Positions 2,387 to 21,460 of a stretch of 33,521 nucleotides of DNA are shown here, one piece after another (position 1 is the first letter of the stretch; each line of letters opens with the position of its first letter). The DNA is from Bradyrhizobiaceae bacterium (lineage in GTDB: Bacteria > Pseudomonadota > Alphaproteobacteria > Rhizobiales > Xanthobacteraceae): NCBI GenBank assembly GCA_947479905.1, contig CANKBJ010000022.1:1-33521 (forward strand). Direction: 5' to 3'. The notes beneath the pieces were generated by a model. The model searched no databases. It worked only from the letters and a program-made list of their open reading frames with translations, and was not told the DNA's origin. The translations under genes and the position numbers were made by a program.

Positions 2387-3169
2387 ATGACCCACTTCCT
2401 TCATACACAAGGCGACCTCGAGGCCGGGCTCGCCGAACTCATCAAGCTCGATCCGCGTCTGGGTCCGGCCGCGGAAATCGCCGGGGCATTCAATCTGCGC
2501 CGGCGCGAGGGCGGCTATCCGGGCCTGTGCGCCATCGTCTGCGGCCAGCAATTATCCGTCGCCAGCGCCGCGGCCATCCGCGAGCGCTTGTTCGCGGCCT
2601 TCGAGCCGTTTCATCACGACGCGGTGGCACGCGCGCGCAGCGACAAACTCAAGCGGCTCGGCCTGTCCAATGCCAAGATCAAGTCGATCAAGGAAATCGG
2701 CAAGGCGGTCGCCACCGGCGCGATCGACCTCACCGCCGTCGGCGAAATGGATGCCGACGCCGCGCATGCGTTGCTCACCGCGCTGCATGGCGTGGGCCCT
2801 TGGACCGCCGATATTTATCTACTGTTCTGCCTGGGCCATGCCGACGCCTTTCCGGCCGGCGACCTTGCCGTGCAGGAGGCGGCGCGCATTGCGCTATCCT
2901 TACGCAAACGTCCGGACGCCAAGCAGCTCAACAAGATCGCGGAAGCCTGGCGGCCGTGGCGCGGCGTCGCAGCACATTTGATGTGGGCCTATTATCATGT
3001 CGTGAAGAAGCGGGACGGCATTGGCCTGCAGACCAAGGCCAAAGCCGCCGCTAAAAAACACTGGCCGCAAATCAAAAAGACAAAGGCCGTGAAGAAGGCC
3101 GGGAAGGCTGCTAAGACGGCCAAGAAGAAAAAAGGAGTACGCCGTGCCAAGCGACGGTCAGAAAATTAG
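2387..3169 (+). CDS. DNA-3-methyladenine glycosylase (AlkA-like, HhH-GPD superfamily)
   Basis: The 260-residue protein belongs to the helix-hairpin-helix GPD glycosylases that excise alkylated bases in base excision repair. Residues 133-141 (LHGVGPWTA) form the helix-hairpin-helix. Asp159 in DAFPAGDLAVQ occupies the catalytic aspartate position of AlkA. The CGQQLSVASA segment at 52-61 also fits the family. The AlkA N-terminal domain is absent, giving a compact core as in many alphaproteobacterial versions. The last 55 or so residues form a Lys/Ala-rich tail that probably binds DNA non-specifically. The start is an ATG after a purine-rich AGAGAGAGG. The gene overlaps the following esterase gene by 26 bp, so the two are likely translationally coupled. 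Confidence 0.88.
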   Translation: MTHFLHTQGDLEAGLAELIKLDPRLGPAAEIAGAFNLRRREGGYPGLCAIVCGQQLSVASAAAIRERLFAAFEPFHHDAVARARSDKLKRLGLSNAKIKSIKEIGKAVATGAIDLTAVGEMDADAAHALLTALHGVGPWTADIYLLFCLGHADAFPAGDLAVQEAARIALSLRKRPDAKQLNKIAEAWRPWRGVAAHLMWAYYHVVKKRDGIGLQTKAKAAAKKHWPQIKKTKAVKKAGKAAKTAKKKKGVRRAKRRSEN

Positions 3170-3827
3170 CGGTCCTGGCCTTGAACCGAAATCCGGCATG
3201 GCCAAGCAGCTCGTCGTGTTCCTGCACGGCTATGGCGCCGACGGCAACGACCTGATCGACATTGGACGTGCTTGGGCCGCGCTGCTGCCGGACGCGGCCT
3301 TCGTCTCGCCGCATGCGCCGAATCCTTGCGGGCAATCGCCGATGGGCCGCGAATGGTTTCCGCTGACCTTCCGCGATCCGAACGAACGCTGGGTCGGCGT
3401 CAACGCGGCGGCTCCGGCGCTCAACGCCTTTATCGATGCCGAACTCGAGCGCCGCAAGCTGCCGCCCTCCGCGCTCGCTCTGGTCGGCTTCAGCCAGGGC
3501 ACGATGATGTCGCTGCATGTCGGGCTGCGCCGTGCCGTCGCACCGGCGGCGATCGTCGGCTATTCCGGCATGCTGGTGCTGCCGGAAGACCCGGACCCGG
3601 ACGCCTTCGCAGCCGAAATCAAGAGCAGGCCTCCCGTGCTGCTGGTGCATGGCGACGGCGACGAGATGATTCCGGTCCAGGCGGTTTTCCACGCCTCGCA
3701 AGGACTGGCGGCGCTGGAAGTACCGACCCAGTGGCACATCTCGCCCGGTATCGGCCACGGTATCGATCAGGAAGGCCTGCGCCACGGCGGGGAGTTTCTC
3801 GCCAAGCAGTTTGCCGCCCGAAAATAG
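3144..3827 (+). CDS. Phospholipase/carboxylesterase family alpha/beta hydrolase
   Basis: This 227-residue serine hydrolase belongs to the small carboxylesterase/acyl-protein thioesterase group. The oxyanion region reads FLHGYGADGND (27-36). The nucleophile elbow GFSQG carries Ser117, the acid is Asp173 in HGDGDEMIP, and the base is His205 in GIGHG, giving a complete triad. No signal peptide or membrane segment is seen, so it is cytoplasmic. The start is GTG at 3144, fixed by a strong AAAGGAG seven bases upstream. That Shine-Dalgarno lies inside the Lys-rich 3' codons of the preceding glycosylase gene. The natural substrate (short acyl esters or thioesters) cannot be read from sequence. Confidence 0.9.
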   Translation: MPSDGQKISGPGLEPKSGMAKQLVVFLHGYGADGNDLIDIGRAWAALLPDAAFVSPHAPNPCGQSPMGREWFPLTFRDPNERWVGVNAAAPALNAFIDAELERRKLPPSALALVGFSQGTMMSLHVGLRRAVAPAAIVGYSGMLVLPEDPDPDAFAAEIKSRPPVLLVHGDGDEMIPVQAVFHASQGLAALEVPTQWHISPGIGHGIDQEGLRHGGEFLAKQFAARK

Positions 3828-3939
3828 CTGGGCCGAGGACTTGCCCCCAGCACGGCTTCACAAGCCCGTCATGCTGCACTATTAGTAGAGGGTAAGCTGC
3901 GTGGCGGCAGCGTTCCTTAGGAGGTTGAGGAGCGTCACT

Positions 3940-4497
3940 TTGAATGTGCACGTTTCGCCTGCTGGATTTCCGGCCCTGGTACTCAACGCGGACTTCCGAC
4001 CGCTGAGTTACTATCCCTTGTCGCTATGGTCCTGGCAGGACGCGATCAAGGCCGTCTTCCTTGACCGCGTCAACATCGTCGCCAATTACGACCACGCGGT
4101 GCATTCGCCCAGTTTCGAGATGAAGCTACCGAGCGTGGTGTCGCTCAAGACCTATGTGAAGCCGTCGACGCATCCGGCCTTCACCCGCTTCAACGTCTTC
4201 CTGCGCGACCGCTTCTGCTGCCAGTATTGCGGCGAGCGCAGCGAGCTGACCTTCGATCACCTGATCCCGCGCTCGCGCGGCGGACACACGACCTGGGACA
4301 ATGTGCTGGCCGCCTGCTCGCCGTGCAATCTGCGCAAGGGCAGCCTGACCATGCAGGAGGCGCGCATGTATCCGGCGCAGATGCCGTTCCAGCCGACGGT
4401 GCATCACCTGCACCGCAACGGCCGGCTGTTCCCGCCGAACTATCTGCACGATAGCTGGCTGGATTATCTTTACTGGGATACGGAACTCGATCCGTAA
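3940..4497 (+). CDS. HNH endonuclease family protein
   Basis: About 185 residues in the preferred frame. The central HNH/McrA-type module runs CQYCGERSELTFDHLIP, then RSRGGHTTWDNV and a second pair in CSPCNLRKG. It supplies two CxxC zinc knuckles, the DH catalytic pair and the Asn. The N-terminal third (NADFRPLSYYPLSLWSW) is typical of the stand-alone HNH proteins common in alphaproteobacteria, whose biological role is not established. I place the start at TTG 3940, because GAGGAG at 3927-3932 sits seven bases upstream and the protein then begins NVHVSPAGFPALVLN. A longer form from GTG 3901 is possible but has no obvious ribosome site. No restriction-modification partner is adjacent. Confidence 0.85.
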   Translation: MNVHVSPAGFPALVLNADFRPLSYYPLSLWSWQDAIKAVFLDRVNIVANYDHAVHSPSFEMKLPSVVSLKTYVKPSTHPAFTRFNVFLRDRFCCQYCGERSELTFDHLIPRSRGGHTTWDNVLAACSPCNLRKGSLTMQEARMYPAQMPFQPTVHHLHRNGRLFPPNYLHDSWLDYLYWDTELDP

Positions 4498-9476: not shown

Positions 9477-9561
9477 TGGTGCCCCTGGCCGGACTCGAAC
9501 CAGCACACCTTGCGGTACCTGATTTTGAGTCAGGCGCGTCTACCAATTCCGCCACAGGGGC
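9477..9561 (-). tRNA. tRNA-Leu (anticodon CAA)
   Basis: On the minus strand the sequence begins GCCCCTGTGGCGGAATTGG and ends with CCAGGGGC-A-CCA. This gives a seven-base-pair acceptor stem (GCCCCTG/CAGGGGC), discriminator A and an encoded CCA (9477-9479). The anticodon arm is CCTGA-CTCAAAA-TCAGG, so the anticodon is CAA, reading UUG. The T arm contains GGTTCGAGTCC. A long variable arm (TACCGCAAGGTGT) identifies a class II tRNA, as expected for leucine. The length is 85 nt including CCA. Confidence 0.96.
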
Positions 9562-18974: not shown

Positions 18975-20321
18975 TTGACCGTTTTTAACCGCTTCAGCCG
19001 CCGTGCCCTGATCATCGCCATCGCCGCCGCGGCACTGGCGACACAGGCATCCGGCCGCGCCCAGGCCGAGGCCCAGCTATTGATCGAAGCCGCGACCGGC
19101 AAGGTTCTGCACGCCGAAAATGCCAACTATCCGTGGTATCCGGCTTCGGTCACCAAACTGATGACCGCCTACACAACTTTGCGCGCCGTCAAGGAACAGC
19201 GCATCACCTTCAACACGCTGCTGACCATGTCGCGCAACGCGGTGGCGCAGCAGCCGACCAAAATGGGCTTCAAGCTCGGCACGACGCTGACCGTCGACAA
19301 CGCGCTCAAGATGCTGATGGTGAAATCCGCCAACGACGTCGCGGTCGCCATCGCCGAAGGGGTCGGCGGTTCGCTCGATGGCTTCGCCGACATGATGAAC
19401 GCCAATGCGCGCCGGCTGGGCATGTCGCAGAGCAATTTCGTCAACCCGAACGGATTGCCGGCGGAAAACCACGTCTCGTCGGCGCGCGACCTCGGCATTC
19501 TGGCGCGCGCGCTGATCCAGGAATTTCCCGAGGCCGATTCCTATTGGCACATTCATTCGATCCGCTACGGCAACCGGGTGATGAAGAACTACAACAATCT
19601 GATCGACCGCTATCCCGGCGCCGATGGCATGAAAACCGGCTTCATCTGCGCCTCGGGTTACAATGTCGTCGCATCCGCCACCCGCAACGGCCGCCGCCTG
19701 ATCGCGGTCGTGCTCGGCGCCTATTCCGGCGCGGTGCGGGCGCAGAAGGCGGCGCAATTGCTCGAACGCGGCTTCGGCAGCGGCGGGCTGAGCTGGCTGA
19801 CGCCGTCGCTCGGCACCGTCGACGCGCTGGCGCCGATCGATGCCCAACCGCCGAATCTGCGCGAGGAAATGTGCGGCGGTCATCGGCGCAAGCCGCCGTC
19901 GGAAGACAATCAGGAAGAAGAAACCGAAGCCGCCGGCACGCCGGCCGAAGGCGAAGCCGGCAACGGCCAGGCGAACGGTGGCCAGGCCTTCATGCTGTCG
20001 AATCTGAAGACCGCGGCCGGCAAGTTCGTGCTCGGTCCGCCGGTCGATACGACGCCGCCGGTCGTGGTGTTTACCGGCCCGGCCGACAGACCCGATACTG
20101 TCGCGCAGACCGCGGGCGGCGGCGGCGGCAAAAAGAAAAAGAAAGTCGCCGCCAAGCCCGCGGCAGCCAAATCATCGGAAGCGAAGCCTGCCGACACGAA
20201 GCCTTCCGCCGAGGCCAAGCCGGCGGCAGCGCCAAAGCCGGCGGCGGCGGCAAAGCCCACGGCCACGCCGAAAGCCGCGGCCAAGCCGGCAAAGCCGAAA
20301 GTCTCGTCGGCCGCGCAATGA
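18975..20321 (+). CDS. D-alanyl-D-alanine carboxypeptidase (PBP5/DacF family)
   Basis: The 448-residue protein has a signal peptide (residues 1-31). Penicillin-binding motifs are SVTK (Ser58-Lys61), SAN (118-120) and KTG (220-222). It trims the terminal D-Ala of peptidoglycan pentapeptides in the periplasm. The C-terminal part lacks the usual PBP5 stalk and amphipathic anchor. From about residue 295 it is low complexity: acidic Glu/Gly stretches, then a Gly5-Lys5 run and a tail of Lys-Pro-Ala repeats to the end, possibly binding cell-wall polymers. The start appears to be TTG 18975 (TVFNRFSRRALIIA), since no ATG or GTG exists in frame before the catalytic domain. The stop overlaps the next start by four bases (ATGA). 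Confidence 0.9.
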   Translation: MTVFNRFSRRALIIAIAAAALATQASGRAQAEAQLLIEAATGKVLHAENANYPWYPASVTKLMTAYTTLRAVKEQRITFNTLLTMSRNAVAQQPTKMGFKLGTTLTVDNALKMLMVKSANDVAVAIAEGVGGSLDGFADMMNANARRLGMSQSNFVNPNGLPAENHVSSARDLGILARALIQEFPEADSYWHIHSIRYGNRVMKNYNNLIDRYPGADGMKTGFICASGYNVVASATRNGRRLIAVVLGAYSGAVRAQKAAQLLERGFGSGGLSWLTPSLGTVDALAPIDAQPPNLREEMCGGHRRKPPSEDNQEEETEAAGTPAEGEAGNGQANGGQAFMLSNLKTAAGKFVLGPPVDTTPPVVVFTGPADRPDTVAQTAGGGGGKKKKKVAAKPAAAKSSEAKPADTKPSAEAKPAAAPKPAAAAKPTATPKAAAKPAKPKVSSAAQ

Positions 20322-21460
20322 GCGAGTCCGACAGAAGCGCGGCGCGCCGAACGCCGCCAGTGCCAATCCCGCTCACTTTGCTCACCGGCTTTCTCGGCGC
20401 CGGCAAAACCACTTTGCTCAACCGGCTCTTGGAAGACCCGGCGCTGGCCGACACCGCCGTCATCATCAATGAATTCGGCGAGGTGTCGCTCGATCATCTG
20501 CTGGTCGATTATGTCGGCGACAACATGGTGGTGCTGCAATCGGGATGTCTGTGTTGCACGCTGCGCGGCGACCTGGTCGACGGGCTTGAGAAGCTTTTGC
20601 GCGATCTCGACAATGGCCGGATCAAATTCAGCCGCGTGCTGCTGGAAACGACCGGTCTGGCCGATCCGGCGCCGGTGCTGCATACCGCGATGGCGCATCC
20701 CTATCTGGTCAAGCGCTTCCGCCTCGACGGCGTGGTGACGGTTGTCGATGCGATCAATGGCGAAGGCGCGCTCGACGCGCATCCGGAAGCGGTCAAGCAG
20801 GTCGCGGTCGCCGACCGCATCGTGCTGAGCAAGACCGATCTCGCAGACGCGGAGGTCACGCAGCATCTGCTCGATCGCCTGCGCGCGCTTAACCCAGCCG
20901 CTGTCGTACTCGATGCGGCGAAAGGCGAAGCGACCGCCGAGCGCCTGGTCAATTGCGGGCTATACGACCCGGCGCACAAAATTCCGGATGTCAAAAAATG
21001 GCTGGCGGCGGAGGCCTATGCCGACGCGCATTCGCACGGGCACCACCATCACCACCATGATGTGAACCGGCACGACGATCATATCGTCTCGTTTGTTCTG
21101 ACGGCCAACAAACCGATCCCCGCCGGCACGCTCGACATGTTCCTGGAACTTCTGCGCGCCACCTATGGCGCCAATCTGCTGCGCATGAAAGGCATCGTCG
21201 ATGTCGCCGAAATGCCAGGGACGCCCGTGGTGGTCCATGGCGTACAGCACATATTCCATCCCACCGCGCAGCTTGAGCGGTGGCCCGACGACGACCGCCG
21301 GACCAGGCTTGTGTTCATCACCAAGGACCTGCCCGAGCGTACCGTGCGCGAGCTTTTTGACGCTTTTCTGGGCGCGGCCGCGCCCGACCGTCCCGACCGT
21401 GCCGCCCTGACCGACAATCCGCTCATCCCCTTCGGCGGGTCAGATAGCCGCGTGCGATAG
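20318..21460 (+). CDS. COG0523/CobW-family GTPase, zinc or cobalt metallochaperone
   Basis: The 380-residue G3E GTPase has a P-loop GFLGAGKT (24-31), the metal-binding GCLCC motif (76-80), ETTGLADPAP in switch II and the guanine-specificity SKTD (171-174). A histidine-rich loop at 238-255 holds 11 histidines, including six in a row, and should bind zinc, cobalt or nickel. A CobW C-terminal domain follows (from about residue 257). Such proteins deliver metal to client enzymes using GTP hydrolysis. The ATG overlaps the dacF-like stop by four bases, so the two are translationally coupled. No cobalamin biosynthesis genes are nearby, which favours a zinc role, but this is inference. The same frame is open far upstream through the carboxypeptidase gene without meaning. 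Confidence 0.92.
   Translation: MSESDRSAARRTPPVPIPLTLLTGFLGAGKTTLLNRLLEDPALADTAVIINEFGEVSLDHLLVDYVGDNMVVLQSGCLCCTLRGDLVDGLEKLLRDLDNGRIKFSRVLLETTGLADPAPVLHTAMAHPYLVKRFRLDGVVTVVDAINGEGALDAHPEAVKQVAVADRIVLSKTDLADAEVTQHLLDRLRALNPAAVVLDAAKGEATAERLVNCGLYDPAHKIPDVKKWLAAEAYADAHSHGHHHHHHDVNRHDDHIVSFVLTANKPIPAGTLDMFLELLRATYGANLLRMKGIVDVAEMPGTPVVVHGVQHIFHPTAQLERWPDDDRRTRLVFITKDLPERTVRELFDAFLGAAAPDRPDRAALTDNPLIPFGGSDSRVR

What the first reader, a model, noticed from the sequence alone, without database searches (positions are those of the whole stretch)
3901..4497. HNH endonuclease likely starts at a TTG codon
GAGGAG stands seven bases before TTG 3940, and the family-like sequence begins right there, while the upstream GTG 3901 has no ribosome site. 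A TTG start would keep expression of a nuclease low.
Basis: partly seen in the sequence, partly recalled or inferred. Interest (0 to 1): 0.2.

Follow-up and report, generated by a model that had tools for sequence, protein, structure and literature searches.

The report
Nuclease gene keeps weak start codon
This bacterial DNA-cutting enzyme gene most likely begins at an unusual weak start codon (TTG), and its relatives in a large group of bacteria mostly keep TTG or GTG instead of the usual ATG, together with a shared promoter-like sequence, as if the cell takes care to make little of it.

Summary
The TTG start at 3940 is right. In 117 same-family orthologue rows the aligned start is TTG 96, GTG 20, ATG 1; of the 105 starting exactly at the aligned codon, 44 have no in-frame start codon further upstream. 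The 3901-3939 stretch is not conserved as protein. "No ribosome site" for GTG 3901 is inexact: GAGG stands 9 nt upstream, but at or before the predicted transcription start.

More than was claimed: of 14 inferred start changes, 1 goes to ATG and 13 are TTG/GTG swaps, against 38:12 for alphaproteobacterial genes (p=4e-6). Two upstream neighbour genes mostly use ATG. Upstream lies an element, CTTCACA-N5-GWCAYR plus a -10-like box, kept across the order (54 of 66 loci within two mismatches; 0 of 66 shuffled). Of 40 exact matches in 47 genomes, 26 are at this gene.

Best explanation: a conserved HNH nuclease held at low expression by its own promoter and a weak start codon. Start site: near certain. 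Selection against ATG: likely. Low expression and the element's binder: untested. Not a new kind of system.

The parts
3940..4497 (+). HNH endonuclease coding sequence, 185 aa, from TTG 3940 to TAA
   Evidence: Pfam PF01844/PF14279; orthologue alignment; D-H, N and two C-x-x-C conserved in a 31-row alignment
3940..3942 (+). TTG start codon
   Evidence: aligned start TTG 96, GTG 20, ATG 1 of 117 orthologue rows
3927..3932 (+). Shine-Dalgarno-like GAGGAG, 7-nt spacer to TTG
   Evidence: an AGGAG, GGAGG or AGGAGG core within 20 nt in 78 of 105 aligned orthologues (47, 22 and 9)
3919..3924 (+). second SD-like AGGAGG, 15 nt before TTG (long spacing)
3856..3873 (+). conserved element CTTCACAAGCCCGTCATG: -35-like CTTCAC plus conserved spacer half G(T/A)CA(C/T)R
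   Evidence: TTCACRA upstream in 105 of 117 (shuffle expectation 1.2); order-wide; 26 of 40 exact matches in 47 genomes are at this gene
3880..3885 (+). -10-like TATTAG (TATARA or TGTAGT in many relatives), 17 nt after TTCACA
   Evidence: column counts. The tool's E. coli-type scan found no promoter here
3886..3888 (+). in-frame TAG stop upstream of GTG 3901
3896..3911 (+). possible small 5' hairpin GCTGC-GTGGCG-GCAGC; its loop holds GTG 3901
   Evidence: stem of 5 pairs or more in 59 of 100 orthologues, mean 4.52 against 3.66 shuffled; not significant in the window alone (z -1.0)
3901..3903 (+). GTG start proposed by ORF calling; rejected
   Evidence: no conserved peptide after it, frame not kept in all close relatives
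2387..3169 (+). HhH-GPD DNA glycosylase gene, conserved upstream neighbour
   Evidence: PF00730; same strand, less than 6 kb upstream of HNH in 51 of 58 genomes holding both
3144..3827 (+). phospholipase/carboxylesterase gene between glycosylase and HNH (GTG start here, ATG in most relatives examined)
   Evidence: PF02230; start control

Best explanation
The gene is a chromosomal HNH nuclease, one close copy in this genome, translated from TTG 3940 with GAGGAG as ribosome-binding site. Its own sigma-70-like promoter (CTTCAC 3856, TATTAG 3880) starts an mRNA at about 3891-3894, so GTG 3901 sits only some 7-10 nt from the 5' end and is not used. The weak start (TTG or GTG) has been kept and ATG mostly avoided in the Hyphomicrobiales (order name taken from record titles), most likely because the cell needs a small amount of a potentially harmful nuclease. 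Shown: start site by comparison; conservation of the non-ATG start and of the promoter element. Inferred: transcription start, low protein level, reason for it.
For: Start codons 96 TTG, 20 GTG, 1 ATG in 117 orthologue rows from 116 same-family genomes; in 80 named loci 64 TTG, 6 GTG, 1 ATG of the 71 with a start at the aligned codon, 7 others with a TTG at a shifted place, 2 cut off; TTG in 13 of 13 further same-genus rows that align from residue 1. 44 of 105 have no in-frame start upstream; in L127 and L140 a stop stands directly before TTG. Other families of the order, by the SD rule: GTG 38, TTG 17, ATG 11 of 66. Start changes 1 to ATG against 13 between TTG and GTG, compared with 38 and 12 read from Belinky et al. 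2017 (PMC5622118, passages): Fisher p=4e-6. At 57 four-fold sites of the same gene T is 417 of 6642 (6%) and G 3202 (48%), so composition does not explain T as first base in 82% of starts. Flanking codons change (LNAH, LTAA, LHAA) while TTG stays, so it is not part of a longer fixed motif. Neighbour controls by the same rule: esterase ATG 24, GTG 6, TTG 0 of 30; glycosylase ATG 19, GTG 7, TTG 4 of 30. Promoter element.
Against: The start codon is not frozen: 14 changes on the tree against a median of 22 (range 4-41) at four-fold sites. One orthologue has ATG (L031), and the order has 11 of 66 and the other orders 9 of 27 ATG by the SD rule. 61 of 105 do have some in-frame start codon upstream. 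SD sequences are strong, which offsets a weak start. The SD rule and the aligned position disagree in 7 of 117. The element is not wholly private: 14 of 40 exact matches lie elsewhere, more than its reversed control gives (2 in the same 47 genomes). No expression data were seen.
Confidence: 0.8

Rival explanations
1. Translation starts at GTG 3901, giving a 198-aa protein with 13 extra residues.
For: In-frame GTG with GAGG 9 nt upstream; the ORF tool lists it; the GTG is still in frame in L034 and L039.
Against: Extra residues not conserved and frame lost in L036, L037, L041; 44 of 105 orthologues have no start codon upstream; GTG begins 16 nt after the end of the -10-like box.
Confidence: 0.03
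2. TTG/GTG is an inherited accident: a strong SD makes ATG unnecessary, so there is no selection for a weak start.
For: Strong SD in most orthologues; start-codon changes do occur; compensation by strong SD is reported for GUG/UUG genes (PMC5622118, passages).
Against: Inferred changes go to ATG in 1 of 14 although ATG is favoured genome-wide; T held against a G/C-rich third-position bias.
Confidence: 0.2
3. The non-ATG start serves regulation (for example growth- or initiation-factor-dependent translation, or SD masking by a leader fold) and not a low constant level.
For: Leader can fold over GAGGAG in the window; small hairpin enriched.
Against: Fold not clearly better than shuffles (z -1.06); SD-masking pairing not seen by eye in the Bradyrhizobium-type leaders printed.
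Confidence: 0.12

Closest known systems
HNH endonucleases of Pfam PF01844 / PF14279
   Same: HNH core with D-H, N and two C-x-x-C, above both gathering scores; closest solved chain 4h9d, HNH endonuclease, E 1.5e-9
   Different: Function of this 185-aa group unknown to me; no Pfam domain before about residue 94 of 185
IscB / Cas9 HNH domain
   Same: HNH part resembles NCBIfam guided_IscB (42.7 bits) and PDB 9k30 TbaIscB (E 8e-7)
   Different: Far below the IscB cut-off of 175 bits; only 185 aa; no RuvC hit
Genes with conserved non-AUG starts that limit expression (E. coli infC AUU, cyaA UUG; recalled, not looked up)
   Same: Weak start kept through long evolution
   Different: Here a nuclease, TTG and GTG interchange, and no expression effect has been measured
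Rhizobial sigma-70 promoter CTTGAC-N17-CTATAT (PMC2573895, passage)
   Same: CTTCAC and a TATA-type -10 at like spacing
   Different: Third -35 base is C in at least 105 of 117 orthologues; an extra conserved GWCAYR in the spacer

Membership tests
HNH endonuclease (PF01844, PF14279) | Score above the curated cut-off | tested here: met
   51.8 against 21.4 and 48.7 against 27.5 bits
HNH endonuclease (PF01844, PF14279) | Catalytic and zinc residues kept (D-H ... N ... C-x-x-C) | tested here: met
   Invariant in the 31-row alignment; assignment of catalytic roles recalled
HNH endonuclease (PF01844, PF14279) | Cuts DNA | not testable with these tools
   No assay
IscB RNA-guided nuclease | Score above NCBIfam guided_IscB cut-off; RuvC domain | tested here: not met
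   42.7 against 175 bits; no RuvC in Pfam
Septu PtuB and other defence HNH proteins | Full-length match to the PADLOC model | tested here: not met
   Partial HNH-only matches, best PtuB 30.5 bits over 33-85 of 227; neighbours were not scanned with PADLOC
Genes with a conserved expression-limiting non-AUG start | Non-AUG start conserved beyond genus | tested here: met
   116 of 117 rows in the family; 55 of 66 elsewhere in the order by the SD rule
Genes with a conserved expression-limiting non-AUG start | Change to AUG raises protein level | not testable with these tools
   Needs a reporter
GcrA/CcrM-controlled promoters | GANTC in the promoter/leader | tested here: not met
   None in window 3841-3960; found in 28 of 66 order-level leaders against 11.4 expected by shuffle

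The most novel reading that the evidence does not exclude
The CTTCACA-N5-GWCAYR site, kept across an order and found mainly at this gene, is a dedicated operator over the -35 and spacer: the HNH protein (or a partner) binds it and represses its own gene, and together with the ATG-avoiding start forms a two-step lock on a DNA-repair-linked nuclease that is toxic in excess.
Probability: 0.1. Interest if true: 0.6.

Novelty: new member of a known kind. Interest (0 to 1): 0.4.

Why it matters
Weak start codons are often treated as noise that drifts towards ATG. Here is an orthologue group in which ATG was mostly avoided across an order, next to ordinary ATG-using neighbours, with a promoter element found mainly at this gene. 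It gives a clean natural case to test whether start-codon weakness is selected, and it points to a widespread nuclease (a match in 118 of 119 same-family genomes) beside a base-excision glycosylase, whose function I could not find in the searches made.

Tried and rejected
GTG 3901, TTG 3925 and GTG 3946 as starts: rejected by comparison (only 9 of 105 orthologues have a start-capable codon at the 3946 position). Hairpin as a dispersed repeat: the exact 13-mer was found 6 times in 4 genomes, its reversed control 5 times. RNA structure: window leader not clearly better than shuffles. Sigma-70 scan with E. coli consensus: 0 sites. Regulon search with the element: 40 distinct exact matches in 47 genomes, 26 at the HNH gene, 14 elsewhere (3 of the 26 placed by coordinates), reversed control 2. 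I saw no second shared target among the 14, but did not annotate them; an open-frame test does not tell coding from upstream places here, since HNH leaders also lie in long open frames. 15 of the 40 genomes had no exact match. CenR (TGA-N8-TGA, PMC9275681 passages) and PhoB (CTGTCAT-N4-CTGTCAT, PMC2573895 passage) sites considered by eye: spacing or letters do not fit well. AlphaFold2 model: mean pLDDT 48, only the HNH core confident, so no fold search was made. Rfam at gathering scores: only a tRNA. Papers: 10 searches, seen as listings with abstract starts, showed nothing on this HNH group's start codon or promoter; most subscription journals are not held. PMC3885167 (passages) was not relevant.

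Rows dropped or set by hand: of 120 family rows 3 are paralogues with ATG starts (L199-L201) and were left out of counts of 117; 12 of the 117 have small indels and their start was set by hand (11 TTG, 1 GTG); G036 and G048 lack the N-terminus and were not fetched; G031 has two copies, both kept. Order set: 66 loci, out of 132 genomes of other families with a match, 26 being top-ranked and 40 chosen mostly one per family. Class set: 28 top-ranked loci out of 99 genomes with a match, 1 without a start. Neighbour controls: the 30 best loci, out of 47 (esterase) and 58 (glycosylase) genomes with a match. The hairpin count used 100 of the 105 rows with the promoter motif. Table digits in PMC5622118 were printed run together and split by me.

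Full report
Observation. The letters are as described: GAGGAG 3927-3932, a 7-base spacer, TTG 3940. The ORF tool starts the frame at GTG 3901; an in-frame TAG at 3886-3888 closes it upstream, and TTG 3925 and GTG 3946 are also in frame. GTG 3901 has a weak GAGG 9 nt upstream, so 'no ribosome site' is inexact. The protein is an HNH endonuclease (PF01844, PF14279); its closest solved chain is 4h9d, an HNH endonuclease, with weaker likeness to the HNH part of IscB, and the best phage family is PHROG 16726 over residues 12-181 of the 184-aa query. One close copy was found in the window's own genome, which is 87% complete.

Start site. 118 of 119 genomes of the same family and 137 of 150 of the order have a match. 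Reading each family orthologue from the in-frame stop to the conserved block, the codon aligned with 3940 is TTG in 85, GTG in 19 and ATG in 1 of 120 rows; the other 15 are 12 shifted by indels and 3 paralogues. With the 12 placed by hand: 96 TTG, 20 GTG, 1 ATG of 117. An independent rule, best SD within 4-12 nt, gave 92 TTG, 24 GTG, 4 ATG of all 120 rows including the paralogues, and disagreed with the aligned codon in 7 of 117. 44 of 105 have no start codon further upstream; in two the stop codon touches the TTG. In 80 named loci the aligned start is TTG 64, GTG 6, ATG 1 of the 71 with a start there, and 13 of 13 further same-genus rows have TTG. The upstream stretch shows no shared peptide; the counterpart of GTG 3901 is out of frame in L036, L037 and L041 (88-90% protein identity) and in frame in L034 and L039. 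TTG 3940 is the start.

Is the weak start selected? Published switches in alphaproteobacteria, as I read the table (PMC5622118, passages), are 38 from GUG/UUG to AUG and 12 between GUG and UUG. On the gene tree of 117 rows I count 1 and 13 (Fisher p=4e-6; midpoint root, parsimony). Third bases at 57 four-fold sites of the gene are 48% G, 42% C, 6% T, 3% A, so T as first base in 82% of starts is not drift with composition. Against a strict reading, the start codon changes 14 times, within the range of four-fold sites (median 22, range 4-41), so what is kept is 'not ATG', with TTG preferred, and not one fixed triplet. In other families of the order GTG dominates (38 GTG, 17 TTG, 11 ATG of 66), and in other orders the pattern fades (13 GTG, 9 ATG, 5 TTG of 27). 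Controls, the 30 best same-family loci of each neighbour: the esterase is ATG in 24, GTG in 6; the glycosylase ATG in 19, GTG 7, TTG 4 by the same rule, and its usual position (21 codons before the anchor) carries ATG in 22 of 30. The three ATG paralogues lack the promoter element (best 4-6 mismatches).

Upstream anatomy. TTCACRA occurs within 200 nt upstream in 105 of 117 (expected 1.2), followed by a conserved G-T/A-C-A-C-G and, 17 nt after TTCACA, a -10-like box. Across the order, CTTCACA-N5-GWCACG is found with at most 2 mismatches in 54 of 66 and in 0 of 66 shuffled leaders; in other orders in 3 of 27, and 0 of 27 shuffled. The exact pattern CTTCACA-N5-GWCAYG occurs 0-3 times per genome: 40 distinct matches in 47 genomes, 26 at the HNH gene and 14 elsewhere, against 2 for the reversed control; so it is mainly, not only, at this gene. 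In a control, the top 7-mer upstream of the glycosylase is in 11 of 30, upstream of HNH in 24-28 of 30 in three random draws. The element sits 60-198 nt from the start (mostly 70-107), so it is promoter-like and not part of the ribosome site. In the window it is 3856-3873, with TATTAG at 3880-3885, which puts the predicted transcript start near 3891-3894 (inference). It resembles the rhizobial sigma-70 consensus CTTGAC-N17-CTATAT (PMC2573895, passage) with C for G in the -35; the E. coli-type scan sees no promoter there. A small hairpin follows in many leaders (59 of 100 with 5 pairs or more), but the window's fold is not clearly better than shuffles, so I give it little weight.

Setting and mechanism. 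A HhH-GPD DNA glycosylase lies on the same strand within 6 kb upstream in 51 of 58 genomes with both genes, yet HNH keeps its own element where the glycosylase is further off (G024, 8 kb). I take the gene to encode a low-abundance nuclease, perhaps repair-linked, held down by a non-consensus promoter of its own and a weak start. The level, the need for it, and any binder of the element are inferred, not shown.

Verdict. The finding was correct in its main point and modest; the follow-up shows order-wide, though not complete, avoidance of ATG and an order-wide promoter element. It is a new member of a known kind (conserved weak starts), of moderate interest.

Noticed in passing
window 3856-3873; loci L002-L031, L112-L198, L205-L270: Order-wide conserved promoter-like element CTTCACA-N5-GWCAYR upstream of the HNH gene, with TCAC repeated at 11-bp spacing in the commonest form; its binder is unknown.
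   Followed up: partly
leaders of order-level loci, e.g. L206, L214, L215, L218, L231; not in the window: GANTC (CcrM methylation site) within 60 nt before the start in 28 of 66 order-level loci against 11.4 by shuffle (next of seven like pentamers 14 of 66), 35 of 117 in the family against 19.3 (but AGNCT 30 of 117), 7 of 27 in other orders against 4.1; may hint at cell-cycle control in some clades.
   Followed up: partly
window 2387-4497: Gene order glycosylase - esterase - HNH recurs in many genera of the family; the glycosylase is within 6 kb upstream in 51 of 58.
   Followed up: partly
L199, L200, L201 (G101, G010, G117): Second HNH paralogues, 55-66% identical to the window protein, start with ATG and lack the promoter element.
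   Followed up: partly
L362 (G056): An exact copy of the element stands shortly upstream of a frame that looks like a cyclic-nucleotide-binding protein (read by eye); possibly chance.
   Followed up: no
window 19133-21460: Long frame with a CobW domain only in its second half (residues 413-746 of 775); first half matched no Pfam family at the cut-off used, true start unclear.
   Followed up: no
window 9480-9561: tRNA gene on the minus strand.
   Followed up: no
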